DNA from: a virus
Reading direction: 5' to 3' (one strand)
Virus record (IMG/VR): IMGVR_UViG_3300042863_000513
Coordinates: 1-41,661 of that record
DNA: 41,661 bases
This document shows positions 8,057 through 18,775 of this stretch, piece after piece. How positions within the stretch are numbered: position 1 is the first letter of the stretch; each line of letters begins with the position of its first letter. The position numbers were made by a program, and so were the translations under genes. The notes under the pieces were generated by a model, which worked only from the letters and a program-made list of their open reading frames with translations, did no database searches and was not told where the DNA came from.

Positions 8057-11000
8057 ATGGCAATTAAGATTTGTGGTAATATTGTATTACCAAACATTAA
8101 TGGTGGGAATTGTAATAACTATTCTCTTGGCGCAAATGCATTAGAATCAGTTACTACTGGATGTAACAACTTTGCGGTTGGGTTAGGCGCCGCCACACTT
8201 AACGTCATTGGATGTAATAACACAGCTATTGGGTATGGATCGTTATGTAACAATGTAACTGGGTCTGATAATATTGCAATTGGATATTCATCATTATTTT
8301 CTAATACTATTGGTGATGATAATATTGCTTTAGGATATGAAGCACTTAAATGTAATCTTGCTAGTACAAATATTGCAATAGGCGGTAGTTCATTAAGATG
8401 TAATACTACTGGCAGTGGAAACGTTGGTATTGGTTTTCTTTCTTTAGAATGTAATTCTACTGGTAAATTCAACGTTGCAATTGGTGGTTATGGATCATTA
8501 AGAAATAACAATGCAGGAGATTATAATATTGCATTGGGTGCTAGATCATTAGAAACTAATGTTTGTGGTCGTTATAATATAGCACAGGGTTATTACGCAC
8601 TTGGATCAAACACTGTAGGTAATAGTAATATCGCTCAAGGTCATTGTGCTTTAAGAGACAATATCACTGGGTCAAACAACGTTGGTATTGGTTGTGCTGC
8701 ATTATTTAAAAATACAATTGGTTCAAACAACTTTGCTGCTGGATTAGGTGCATTGTGTTTAAGTGCTGCTGGTGATAATAACACGGCAATTGGATACAAA
8801 ACACTGGCAACAAATAGTAATGGATTCAATAACGTTGCCATTGGATGTCTTGCACTTAATAATAATGAATTTGGTAATGACAATTTTGCTGCTGGATATA
8901 GATCATTATTCAACAATATAACTGGAAGTAATAGTGTAGCTATTGGATGTTGTGCTCTTTACAATTCTTCTTCTACTACTGGTGGAAATATTGCAATTGG
9001 TTCAGATGCGGGTAAGGCAATTACTAATGGAATAAACAATACAGTTATTGGTTCATTACCGGCGGCTGCTGGATGTGTATGTACTGTATTGATTGGTGCT
9101 GGTACTTGTGAACGTATTCGTGTTGATAATACTGGATTGTATATTAACAATGCATTATGGATCAACAATGGTGCTACAGGTGCCACTGGATTTACTGGTG
9201 CTACTGGTGCCACTGGAGTTGATGGATCAACTGGTGCTACTGGACTTCAAGGTGCTACTGGATTTACTGGATCAACTGGACCTCAAGGTGAGGCAGGTTC
9301 AACTGGCGCTACTGGATTTACGGGTGCCACAGGACTTCAAGGAGATATTGGTGCTACTGGTGCTAGTGGACTTCAAGGAGATATTGGTGCCACTGGTGCA
9401 TCAGGACTAAATGGTTCTACTGGTGCAACGGGTTCTACTGGATTTACAGGCTCAACTGGATTTACTGGAGCCACTGGAAGTACAGGTGCCACTGGATTTA
9501 CAGGATCAACTGGTATTCAAGGTGAGATTGGATCAACTGGTGCTACAGGTATACAAGGAAATATTGGATCAACTGGCGCTACAGGTATTCAAGGTGATAT
9601 TGGATCAACTGGCGCTACAGGTATTCAAGGTGATATTGGTTCTACAGGCTCAACTGGTGCCACAGGTATTCAAGGTTTTGTAGGAACAACTGGCGCTACT
9701 GGATTTACAGGAGCTACAGGAAGTACAGGTGCTACTGGATTTACTGGTGCCACAGGCTCAACTGGTGCAACAGGTATTCAAGGAGATATTGGTTCCACAG
9801 GTTCAACAGGTGCTACTGGATTTACAGGCGCTACAGGAAGTACAGGTGCTACTGGATTTACTGGTTCAACCGGTGCTACCGGAAGTACAGGTGCTACTGG
9901 ATTTACTGGTGCTACTGGTAGTACTGGAGCCACTGGATTTACAGGAAGTACAGGCGCCACTGGTGCTACAGGTATTCAAGGTGATATTGGATCAACAGGT
10001 GCTACTGGATTTACTGGTGCCACAGGTAGTACTGGTGCTACTGGAGTTCAAGGTGATATAGGTAGTACTGGATCTACTGGATTCACAGGATCAACTGGAA
10101 GTACAGGTTCTACTGGATTTACTGGTGCTACTGGAAGTACTGGATCAACAGGATTTACTGGTGCTACTGGAAGTACGGGTGCTACTGGGTTTGACGGTGC
10201 CACTGGAAGTACAGGTGCTACTGGATTTACCGGTGCTACTGGATCAACAGGTGCTACTGGATTTGACGGTTCTACAGGCGCAACAGGCGCTACTGGATTT
10301 CAAGGTTCTACAGGCGCAACAGGTGCAACAGGAAGTGGATCAACTGGATTTACAGGTGCTACTGGTTCAACTGGATCTACTGGAAATATTGGATCAACTG
10401 GATCAACCGGTTCAACTGGATTCACTGGATCAACCGGTGCTACTGGATTTGATGGAGCCACTGGTGCCACTGGTGCCACTGGAGTTCAAGGTGATATAGG
10501 TAGTACTGGATCTACTGGATTCACAGGTGCTACCGGAAGTACTGGTGCTACTGGACTTACAGGGGCAACTGGTATATCTGGAGGAGTTGGAAGTATTGGT
10601 GCCACTGGTGCTACCGGATTCACAGGTGCTACCGGAAGTACTGGCGCTACTGGAATACAAGGTTTTGTAGGAACTACAGGATCTACTGGATTTACTGGAG
10701 CCACAGGTGCTACTGGTATATCAGGGGGAATTGGAAATACTGGATCAACAGGTGCAACTGGATCAACAGGTGCTACTGGATTTACTGGATCAACTGGATC
10801 AACAGGTGCTACTGGATTTACTGGATCAACTGGAGCCACTGGTGCTACAGGGAGCGGAGCCACTGGTGCTACTGGTGCTACTGGAGTTCAAGGCGATATA
10901 GGTTCTACTGGTGCTACTGGATTCACAGGTGCTACTGGGGCAACTGGTGCTACAGGAAGTGGAGCCACTGGTGCTACTGGTTTTGATGGTGCTACTGGAA

Positions 11001-17000: not shown

Positions 17001-18775
17001 CATGTAGTGGATGTCTAATATCTGTTGGTGCAAACAATACCGTTATTGGATCATTAACCGCTGCAGCTGGATGTGTATGCACAGTATTAATTGGCGCTGG
17101 TACTTGCGAACGTATTCGTGTTGACAATAGTGGATTATATATTAACAATGCATTAGTTGGTGGTTTGTCATTAACGGCTCAATGTTCATTATACGTTGGT
17201 GGTGGTGGTACAAGTGCTAACACTAGTTCAGTAAGTAACATTGCAATTGGTTGTTGTGCCTTATTTGCAGTAACTAGTGGATGTAATAATACTGCTATTG
17301 GTCTTAATACACTTGCCTCTAATAACACTGGAAATAACAATACCGCTATTGGATTTAATTCTCTTTGTTCTAATACTACTGGAAGTAACAATACTGCTAT
17401 TGGAATTAGAACATTATTTAGTAATACTATTGGAAATAGTAATACTGCTATTGGATTTGGTGCTCTTTGTGTTAATACTAGCGGAAGTAATAACGTTGCC
17501 ATTGGATGTTTGGCACTGGTAAGAAATACTACTGGAATTCATAACACAGCTATTGGTTTGGGTGCACTTTGTACTAATACTAGTGGAAGTAACAATGTAG
17601 CGATTGGATATGGTACACTTGCTCTTAATACTACTGGATCAAACAATATCGCTATTGGATGTTTATCTCTAGTTCTTAATACCACTGGATCAAGTAATAT
17701 CGGTATTGGATTATGTAGTGGATGTGCATTAACTACTGGTGTAAATAATACTGTAATCGGTTCATTACCAGCAGCTGCAGCTTGTGTATGTACATTATTA
17801 TTAGGTGCTGGTACATGTGAACGTATTCGTGTTGATAATAGTGGATTATATGTAAACAACTCGTTGCTTGCTGGTAATGTGGTTGGACCAGCATCGGCTA
17901 CAGATAATGCTGTAGCACGTTTTGACTTAACAACAGGCAAGATTATTCAAAACTCTGCGGTTATCGTTGATGACACGGGCAATGTGGGGATTGGCACGAC
18001 CTCCCCCACATTGCCACTAAACATTGGAACATCTACGCTGCCCGCTGGAGTAACAATTAATGGGCAAATGATTAGCTCAGATGTTGCTGATACAACACCG
18101 CTATTAAGTCTTCGACGTTCCGCTGCCATTGGCAATCCCATTTTTGCTCAATTTACTTCTGCAGGAACAGCAGCTGCTCCTACAGCGATTGCACTTAATC
18201 GTGGCTTGGGAAGAAATGATTGGTGGGGTTTTGACGGCACTAACTATATTAATGCCGCAGCTGTATCAGTGGCGGCAGATGGAGCGGTATCTGCTGGTGT
18301 TGTCCCCGGCAGAATAGTTTTTGCAACGTCCGCAACTAATACTCCAGTAGAAGCAATGCGAATTACTTCTGCTGGTAATGTTGGAATTGGAACTGCAACG
18401 CCGACATTTAAGTTACAAGTTGTTGGTTCATTTGCCGCAACAACAAAATCATTCGTAATTGATCACCCAACTAAATCTGGAATGAAACTTCGTTATGGAT
18501 CTTTAGAAGGTCCAGAGAACGGTGTTTATGTAAGAGGTAAAACTCAGACCAACATTATTGAACTTCCAGAATATTGGACAAAGTTGATCAATCCTGAGTC
18601 AATCACTGTACAATTAACACCAATTGGACACTATCAAACGTTATATGTTGAAAAGATAGAAGACAATAAAGTATACATTTCTAGCGATAATTTGTTGAAT
18701 AGTTCAATTAATTGTTATTTTAATATATTGGCAGAGAGAATTGACGTTGAGAAATTAGAAGTGGAGATAAAGTAA
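8057..18775 (+). CDS. Giant 3572-residue collagen-like / YadA-head-like fibre
   Basis: Predicted homotrimeric virion fibre or adhesin. Domains by approximate residue: 1-370, head of about 17-residue repeats (NNxAIGxxSLxxNTTGS) resembling YadA/Hep_Hag trimeric adhesin head repeats; 371-1899, collagen-like Gly-X-Y stalk; 1900-2189, second head; 2190-2583, second stalk; 2585-2661, small beta domain ([18 protein letters not shown]...); 2662-2765, third stalk; 2771-3035 and 3036-3275, third and fourth heads; 3276-3572, C-terminal region with [25 protein letters not shown] and a terminal domain ([38 protein letters not shown]) seen at the end of many phage fibres. Each head ends in the same Cys-rich module. 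The stalks contain almost no Pro. The heads carry Cys at regular positions. No signal peptide or membrane segment is seen. The frame is uninterrupted over 10.7 kb, which argues for selection. The stop overlaps the next ATG (TAATG). Confidence 0.9.
9168..13755 (+). repeat. Main collagen-like stalk of the giant fibre
   Basis: About 1528 residues of nearly unbroken Gly-X-Y, mostly [12 protein letters not shown] and GFD, with a frequent six-triplet unit GST-GAT-GFT. Occasional inserts such as SGGVGSI and IQGFVGTT mark older units. Synonymous codons vary (ggt/gga/ggc, act/aca/acc), so the repeat is kept at protein level and is not a recent microsatellite expansion. Confidence 0.93.
13769..13882 (+). 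repeat. Direct repeat, copy A (start of head 2)
   Basis: A 114-base segment coding [18 protein letters not shown]... up to VTSGCNN. It is repeated at high identity at 17177-17290, so head 4 appears to be a duplicate of head 2. Confidence 0.85.
14625..15812 (+). repeat. Second collagen-like stalk of the giant fibre
   Basis: About 395 residues of Gly-X-Y. A unit containing [19 protein letters not shown] recurs three times between about 15150 and 15690, showing local duplication. Confidence 0.9.
16041..16350 (+). repeat. Third collagen-like stalk of the giant fibre
   Basis: About 104 residues of Gly-X-Y, ending in GPAGAG, one of the very few proline-containing triplets. Confidence 0.88.
17177..17290 (+). 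repeat. Direct repeat, copy B (start of head 4)
   Basis: Counterpart of 13769-13882, same length with no indels. It codes [18 protein letters not shown]... up to VTSGCNN; differences are mostly synonymous or conservative. Confidence 0.85.

What the first reader, a model, noticed from the sequence alone, without database searches (positions are those of the whole stretch)
8057..18775. 3572-residue trimeric fibre alternating YadA-like heads with collagen-like stalks
The frame is intact over 10.7 kb and alternates four head blocks with three Gly-X-Y stalks. If the 1528-residue stalk is a continuous triple helix with a rise near 0.29 nm per residue it would be about 430 nm long, several times a T4 long tail fibre (about 145 nm). 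Mixing bacterial trimeric-adhesin-type heads with collagen stalks in one phage polypeptide is unusual.
Basis: partly seen in the sequence, partly recalled or inferred. Interest (0 to 1): 0.85.

Follow-up and report, generated by a model that had tools for sequence, protein, structure and literature searches.

The report
Giant modular phage tail fibre
A bacterial virus encodes one very long protein built from adhesin-like beads, collagen-like rods and a probable receptor-binding tip, which looks like an extreme member of a wider family of mix-and-match virus fibres and lies upstream of a set of sugar-decorating genes whose target is unknown.

Summary
ORF 8057-18775 (3572 aa) is open, and open in three other assemblies of the same phage; the only protein difference seen is one in-frame 12-residue rod unit. 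Order: bead block, 1527-residue Gly-X-Thr rod, bead block, rod, small beta-domain, short rod, two bead blocks, beta-rich linker, C-terminal tip. Beads are 17-residue repeats; an AlphaFold monomer resembles YadA-like heads (Z 11.4-11.7, short of proof for a repeat fold). Rods hold 2 Pro in 654 triplets, Thr at 89% of Y, and one-residue interruptions, so a continuous 430-nm helix is an idealisation. Best reading: a homotrimeric long tail fibre of a jumbo T4-like phage, rods as length-variable spacers, tip as receptor binder; trimer, triple helix and location are inferred. It is not unique: 15 of 65 other head-repeat loci mix heads and rods in one ORF, and the tip occurs with 0 to 652 rod triplets. 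It lacks an autotransporter anchor and an S74 domain. A glycosyltransferase-sulfotransferase-carbamoyltransferase cassette follows head-repeat genes in related phages; whether it acts on fibre, host surface or DNA is open, and a control linking Thr-rich rods to such genes in unrelated phages was negative.

The parts
8057..18775 (+). giant modular fibre ORF, 3572 aa
   Evidence: complete in G001 and G003, open frame in G002
8057..9169 (+). head block 1 (17-residue repeats) with neck
   Evidence: PHROG virion structural and tail spike families, best E 5e-53
9170..13750 (+). collagen-like rod 1, 496 triplets, 19 G-x-G interruptions
   Evidence: Pfam Collagen
13757..14620 (+). head block 2 with neck
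14621..15802 (+). collagen-like rod 2, 123 triplets, 12 irregular steps (one at its first residue)
15803..16027 (+). small domain between rods 2 and 3
   Evidence: PHROG phrog_30556, unknown function, E 1e-12
16028..16363 (+). collagen-like rod 3, 35 triplets, 3 irregular steps (one at its first residue)
16412..17158 (+). head block 3 with neck, directly followed by head block 4
17159..17896 (+). head block 4 with neck (the block modelled)
   Evidence: AF2 pLDDT 71.6, pTM 0.74, confident from about residue 90 on; VIA Z 11.4-11.7 to AtaA, UspA1 and BoaA heads
17897..18424 (+). beta-rich linker similar to Bdellovibrio MAT fibres
   Evidence: phmmer 8oml_A E 7e-12, 8ond_A E 1.5e-9
18425..18772 (+). 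conserved C-terminal tip, predicted beta-sandwich
   Evidence: alignment; AF2, last 80 residues; weak fold matches; within 20 aa of the C-terminus in 29 of 30 ORFs
4380..7883 (+). companion collagen fibre with S74 chaperone and baseplate-wedge-like N-terminus
   Evidence: Pfam S74 E 2e-13; PHROG phrog_958 baseplate wedge E 1e-6
18775..21943 (+). three LamG/ConA-like lectin ORFs (18775-19965, 19965-21269, 21266-21943)
   Evidence: Pfam Laminin_G_3
28710..29606 (+). glycosyltransferase GT1a
   Evidence: Pfam Glycos_transf_1 E 2e-13
29594..30301 (+). glycosyltransferase-like GTb
   Evidence: PHROG phrog_1574, unknown function, E 4e-22; weaker matches to two glycosyltransferase PHROGs
30298..31098 (+). 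sulfotransferase ST1
   Evidence: Pfam Sulfotransfer_3 E 6e-11
31095..32486 (+). glycosyltransferase-like plus methyltransferase
   Evidence: Pfam Methyltransf_24 E 1e-16 and Glycos_transf_2 E 6e-5; PHROG phrog_2675 labelled DNA methyltransferase E 2e-16
32550..33482 (+). GT9 (heptosyltransferase-like)
   Evidence: Pfam GT9 E 3e-5; PHROG phrog_8954 E 2e-77, unknown function
33482..35176 (+). NodU/Nol-like carbamoyltransferase
   Evidence: Pfam E 4e-59; PHROG phrog_1601 E 1.5e-155
35176..36075 (+). sulfotransferase ST2
   Evidence: Pfam E 4e-15
36321..37124 (+). APS-kinase-like half plus nucleotidyltransferase-like half
   Evidence: below the curated NCBIfam cut-offs
37125..39915 (+). two more glycosyltransferases and a methyltransferase

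Best explanation
The ORF encodes a homotrimeric long tail (or baseplate) fibre of a jumbo T4-like phage. Three chains are held in register by beta-roll head blocks, each ending in a conserved neck with a C-x-C...C motif; proline-poor Gly-X-Thr triple-helical rods between them act as long, kinked, length-variable spacers; the C-terminal linker and beta-sandwich tip trimerise and bind the host-surface receptor. If all rods were fully helical they would add about 580 nm (2030 residues x 0.286 nm). Shown here: the frame, the modules, a head-like fold of a monomer model, and that tip, heads and rods are shuffled among relatives. Inferred: trimer, triple helix, virion location, length, receptor binding.
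For: gp23 present, 64-70% identical to jumbo T4-like capsid proteins in the 20 rows listed. Heads fall in PHROG virion structural and tail spike families; the tip's best PHROGs are of unknown function, then tail fibre (E 4e-18). Head model resembles trimeric adhesin heads. Linker matches solved Bdellovibrio fibres, which are trimers according to passages of PMC10769870. Of the tip's first 12 structural matches 11 are named phage or pyocin tail proteins and one a capsule lyase, best Z 7.8. The tip lies within 20 aa of the C-terminus in 29 of 30 distinct ORFs; collagen triplets are 0 in 24 (5 of them cut at the 5' end) and 45, 50, 91, 122, 209 and 652 in six, so the rod behaves as an optional spacer. 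Precedent: E. coli prophage collagen proteins are trimeric dumbbells by EM (passages of PMC3368898).
Against: No trimer was modelled. Foldseek alone gave no head match at E<=0.001; a plant ice-binding beta-roll scores higher (Z 13.7), the UspA1 match has rmsd 7.7, and acyltransferase rolls follow at Z 8-10, so part of the similarity is generic. Tip matches are all under Z 8 and the tip model is poor outside its last 80 residues. Two of the six rod-bearing tip ORFs (L315, L273) came from a collagen pattern search, so the share with rods is biased upward. No virion-attachment domain was recognised at the N-terminus. Two of the three head PHROGs are filed under 'head and packaging'. Proline-poor triple helices are expected to be weak (recalled). 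The two nearest-capsid isolates scanned have no head repeats.
Confidence: 0.75

Rival explanations
1. The downstream cassette decorates the fibre itself (head repeats and/or Ser/Thr of the rods), stabilising proline-poor rods or masking the fibre. This adds to, rather than replaces, the fibre reading.
For: Among 10 GT9 clusters, 9 have at least 3 kb upstream and 7 of these have a head-repeat ORF within 0.7 kb of the cassette (in two loci of one of the seven the gap is 2.1 kb). In head-found loci 10 of 73 head ORFs have a cassette homologue as next gene against 2 of 138 other ORFs of 300 aa or more. Proline-poor rods of G005, G006 and G011 have mostly Ser at Y (148 of 150 in G011), the window Thr.
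Against: No general link: GT1 in 5 of 21 proline-poor Thr-rod contigs vs 4 of 25 proline-rich, sulfotransferase 0 of 21 vs 2 of 25. Cassette phage G010 has 35% Ser+Thr at Y, and G014, G015, G016 and G018 also carry rods with 0.33-0.88 Pro per triplet. Twenty proline-poor tracts from pattern-found loci, most not screened for the cassette and many selected for Thr, have a median of 74% Ser+Thr. 63 of 73 head ORFs have no cassette homologue next. GT9-carbamoyltransferase occurs without head repeats in 3 of 4 isolate or single-cell stretches (S-SSM7, S-CAM3, AG-345-O18). Loci share ancestry, one of the ten hits is weak (22% identity), and four of the contigs were already known from the GT9 search.
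Confidence: 0.25
2. The cassette remodels the host surface (LPS/O-chain), for example to block superinfection, and is tied to the fibre only by lying in the host-recognition cluster.
For: This is the published reading for glycosyltransferases in the pelagimyophage host-recognition cluster (passages of PMC7029224); cyanophage versions have heptose-synthesis genes within a few genes.
Against: Immediate adjacency to the head-repeat ORF in 7 of 9 clusters is more specific than needed.
Confidence: 0.45
3. The cassette is for DNA hypermodification.
For: Phage carbamoyltransferases acting on modified bases are recalled from the literature; the methyltransferase half of 31095-32486 matches a PHROG labelled DNA methyltransferase.
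Against: The operon lies among virion genes; sulfotransferases on DNA are not known to me (recalled); no other base-modifying enzyme among the 26 window ORFs scanned with Pfam.
Confidence: 0.1
4. The giant protein is a capsid fibre rather than a tail fibre.
For: 'Head and packaging' labels for two of three head-repeat PHROGs; gp23 ends 6.9 kb upstream.
Against: Linker and tip resemble tail-type fibres; the neighbouring collagen/S74 fibre has a baseplate-wedge-like N-terminus.
Confidence: 0.15
5. Assembly artefact in the repeat.
For: Repeats are prone to collapse; the window lacks one 12-residue unit present in G001-G003.
Against: The frame is open in three further assemblies; synonymous sites differ at 42%.
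Confidence: 0.03

Closest known systems
Prophage collagen-like side tail fibres (EPcl proteins of E. coli O157:H7)
   Same: Gly-X-Y rods with capping domains in phage fibres; trimeric dumbbells by EM (passages of PMC3368898)
   Different: Their longest collagen domain is 322 residues, with proline at close to half of X positions; flanked by PfN/PfC, which Pfam did not find here
Bdellovibrio MAT fibres (PDB 8oml, 8ond; NS74 subgroup)
   Same: Linker matches at E 7e-12 and 1.5e-9; Bd2133 has a beta-sandwich tip in place of an S74 domain (passages)
   Different: Cellular proteins with signal peptides; the paper's main text holds neither 'collagen' nor 'YadA'
Trimeric autotransporter adhesins (YadA, UspA1, AtaA, BoaA)
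   Same: Similar beta-roll in the monomer model of a head block
   Different: No YadA anchor found; collagen rods as stalks; 17-residue units; no Pfam YadA match
T4-like cyanophage and pelagiphage host-recognition clusters (P-SSM2, S-SSM7, S-CAM3)
   Same: GT9-carbamoyltransferase pair downstream of tail fibre genes; collagen repeats and YadA domains noted in pelagimyophage structural proteins (passages of PMC7029224)
   Different: No head-plus-rod polypeptide in the three cyanophage stretches examined; P-SSM2 has an 11-repeat head ORF and a 17-triplet collagen ORF apart

Membership tests
Trimeric autotransporter adhesin (type Vc) | YadA-like beta-roll head | tested here: inconclusive
   AF2 head 4 vs 3wp8 Z 11.7 (rmsd 4.3, 134 aligned), 3ntn Z 11.5 (7.7, 132), 3s6l Z 11.4 (4.6, 135); the tool warns that repeats under about Z 13 may share only an arrangement; sequence searches do not detect it
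Trimeric autotransporter adhesin (type Vc) | C-terminal YadA anchor beta-barrel | tested here: not met
   Pfam on whole protein: Collagen only at E<=0.01; C-terminal piece: no family at E<=10
Trimeric autotransporter adhesin (type Vc) | N-terminal secretion signal | not tested
   no predictor at hand; sequence read
Phage collagen-like fibre | Gly-X-Y repeats in a phage structural protein | tested here: met
EPcl prophage side tail fibre | PfN / PfC phage fibre domains | tested here: not met
   no such Pfam hit
S74 intramolecular-chaperone fibre | C-terminal Peptidase_S74 domain | tested here: not met
   none in the giant ORF; present in neighbours 4380-7883 and 25565-26164
Bdellovibrio MAT (NS74) fibre | beta-prism fibre segment | tested here: met
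   phmmer E 7e-12 to 8oml_A; weaker with the profile, 8ond_A E 9e-4
Bdellovibrio MAT (NS74) fibre | about 130-aa N-terminal beta domain after a signal peptide | not tested
   no profile of that domain was run; the ORF begins close to head block 1
Collagen triple helix | trimeric triple-helical conformation | not testable with these tools
   needs CD or EM

The most novel reading that the evidence does not exclude
Jumbo T4-like phages carry a Nod-factor-like tailoring operon (glycosyltransferases, sulfotransferases, a kinase that may supply their sulfate donor, a NodU-like carbamoyltransferase) dedicated to a giant head-and-rod fibre, making a sulfated, carbamoylated phage tail fibre whose O-glycans stabilise proline-poor collagen rods of about half a micrometre.
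Probability: 0.2. Interest if true: 0.85.

Novelty: new variant of a known kind. Interest (0 to 1): 0.55.

Why it matters
It shows adhesin-like beta-rolls alternating with proline-poor collagen rods, with a shared tip found on proteins from none to 652 rod triplets: a natural experiment in fibre length and reach. If rods this long are built, the fibre would be several times a T4 long tail fibre. The linked cassette makes it testable whether phages tailor glycans on their own adsorption proteins.

Tried and rejected
Rejected or weakened: (1) Assembly artefact, by other assemblies and synonymous divergence. (2) A general link between Thr-rich rods and glycan genes: control on 50 collagen contigs (21 proline-poor Thr-rod, 25 proline-rich, 4 mixed), no difference; of the four mixed contigs one had GT1 and none a sulfotransferase. 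Left out before that count: contigs under 30 kb, 18 with short tracts, 4 with none, 9 of 34 proline-rich contigs (under 40 kb) and 12 of 16 mixed ones. (3) Cys-rich heads as a mark of the cassette: suggested, then also found in loci with no cassette in view (mean 4.8% in 13 cassette loci; 2.0% in 62 others, ranging from 0 to 7.2%). (4) A T4 late promoter TATAAATA before the ORF: no exact match there; 2 in the window against 6.7 expected. (5) PDB profile search with the head alignment: no match at E<=1. (6) Heads in the two nearest-capsid isolates, Phosso and Vibrio 2.275.O: none. (7) Papers: heads and rods in one phage polypeptide, or a fibre-tailoring cassette, were not found in searches. These cover open-licence PMC papers only; listings were seen, cut to 8 of 12, 8 of 50 and 10 of 120.

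Papers: only passages were seen of PMC7029224, PMC10769870, PMC10253068, PMC3368898, PMC7048315 and PMC3037559.

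Full report
What is there. The window is a whole IMG/VR record of 41,661 bases from a jumbo T4-like phage: its gp23 capsid protein (39-1151) is 64-70% identical to those of Sinorhizobium phage Phosso, Vibrio phage 2.275.O, PA5oct-like Pseudomonas phages and Erwinia/Serratia jumbo phages in the 20 rows listed. ORF 8057-18775 is open, 3572 aa. Two other assemblies (G001, G003) hold the complete frame as identical 3584-aa proteins, and G002 holds it as an open frame of the same length. The sole protein difference from the window is one 12-residue rod unit, [12 protein letters not shown]. The 8056 bases upstream are identical to G001 and the 22,886 downstream differ at 4. Two shorter contigs match head 1 exactly. 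Identical 9-, 12- and 15-residue peptides of rod 1 differ at 42% of third codon positions, so the array is old.

Anatomy. Head block 1, rod 1 (496 triplets), head 2, rod 2 (123), small domain, rod 3 (35), head 3, head 4, linker, tip. Of 654 triplets, Y is Thr in 583; X is Ala (315), Ser (168) or Phe (127); Pro occurs twice. There are 34 G-x-G steps (19, 12, 3), two of them at the first residue of rods 2 and 3; rod 1 has none in its first 387 residues and 16 of its 19 from residue 1389 on. At 0.286 nm per residue the rods would be about 436, 112 and 32 nm, an upper bound that assumes helix throughout. The head unit is 17 residues, for example [17 protein letters not shown]. Each block ends in a neck ([26 protein letters not shown]... 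in block 1) whose three cysteines are kept in 27, 28 and 28 of 34 aligned rows.

Fold. The monomer model of head 4 (34 sequences) has pLDDT 71.6 and pTM 0.74, is confident from about residue 90, and has one short strand per 17-residue turn. Foldseek gives nothing at E<=0.001. VIA re-alignment of 231 chains ranks a ryegrass ice-binding beta-roll first (Z 13.7), then AtaA, UspA1 and BoaA heads (Z 11.7, 11.5, 11.4; rmsd 4.3, 7.7, 4.6) and CbpF (10.9), with acyltransferase rolls at 8-10. 'YadA-like' is therefore likely but not proven. The tip model is good only over its last 80 residues; of its first 12 matches 11 are phage or pyocin tail proteins and one a capsule lyase, all under Z 8. The linker matches solved Bdellovibrio MAT fibres.

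Relatives. A search by tip (80 loci kept of 229) and the other loci in hand gave 30 distinct ORFs with the tip, within 20 aa of the C-terminus in 29. Collagen triplets are 0 in 24 (5 cut at the 5' end) and 45, 50, 91, 122, 209 and 652 in six, two of which came from a collagen pattern search. A search by head block (best 80 of 151 kept, 70 loci) shows heads plus at least 15 collagen triplets in one ORF in 15 of 65 loci (14 contigs), after setting aside three window copies and L401/L402, which are the same phage. The longest is a 3470-codon frame (L439); the closest in plan a 3183-codon frame with the same tip at 69% (L394/L022). The window protein has the most rod triplets in one ORF among those counted but belongs to a family.

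The cassette. Downstream (28710-39915) lie glycosyltransferases, two sulfotransferases, a NodU-like carbamoyltransferase, an APS-kinase-like/nucleotidyltransferase protein and methyltransferases. The GT9 gene found 29 loci, 10 clusters at 90% identity. The order GT1a-GTb-(ST1)-GT9-CarT is seen in 9 of 10 clusters, GT9-CarT alone in the tenth; ST2 follows in most but was not seen in the L266 cluster, and in the L254 cluster ST1 is a fragment or missing in most loci, where the jumbo contigs have one sulfotransferase far from the cassette. Of 9 clusters with at least 3 kb upstream, 7 have a head-repeat ORF within 0.7 kb; the exceptions are the window lineage, where lectin and other genes intervene, and L270. 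Conversely, in head-found loci 10 of 73 head ORFs against 2 of 138 other ORFs have a cassette homologue next (Fisher p 5e-4; related loci, not independent). Collagen occurs in 8 of 15 GT9 records scanned; the 7 without are 45.4 kb or shorter. In eight further records collagen occurs in 5.

Is the rod the target? Against: no enrichment in unrelated collagen phages; G010 has 35% Ser+Thr at Y, and several cassette phages also have proline-rich rods; GT9-CarT occurs without head repeats in three of four isolate or single-cell stretches. For: rods of G005, G006 and G011 are mostly Ser at Y and the window Thr, though proline-poor rods elsewhere are similar (median 74%). Published readings of such gene clusters are host-surface change (passages of PMC7029224) or unknown function (passages of PMC3037559).

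Verdict. A real, very large, modular phage fibre; new variant of a known kind. The cassette's target is the open question worth testing.

Noticed in passing
window 8057-9169, 13757-14620, 16412-17896: Head repeats are about 5% Cys (other ORFs of related loci about 1%), at repeat positions 6, 7, 10, 11 and 16; many relatives have almost none, so a Cys-rich and a Cys-poor class of the same roll seem to exist.
   Followed up: partly
G005 (L115), G011 (L465): Collagen rods whose Y position is almost always Ser (163 of 164; 148 of 150), with X rich in Thr, Trp, Tyr, Phe or Ile and hardly any proline.
   Followed up: partly
window 36321-37124: APS-kinase-like N-terminal half fused to a nucleotidyltransferase-like C-terminal half; could supply the sulfotransferases' donor.
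   Followed up: partly
window 10888-13737, - strand: A 949-aa open frame antisense to rod 1, probably a by-product of the biased codon repeat, not taken as a gene.
   Followed up: no
L460, L461, L462 (P-SSM2, S-SSM7, S-CAM3): GT9-carbamoyltransferase pair followed within a few genes by heptose kinase/adenylyltransferase and phosphoheptose isomerase genes, suggesting ADP-heptose as donor.
   Followed up: partly
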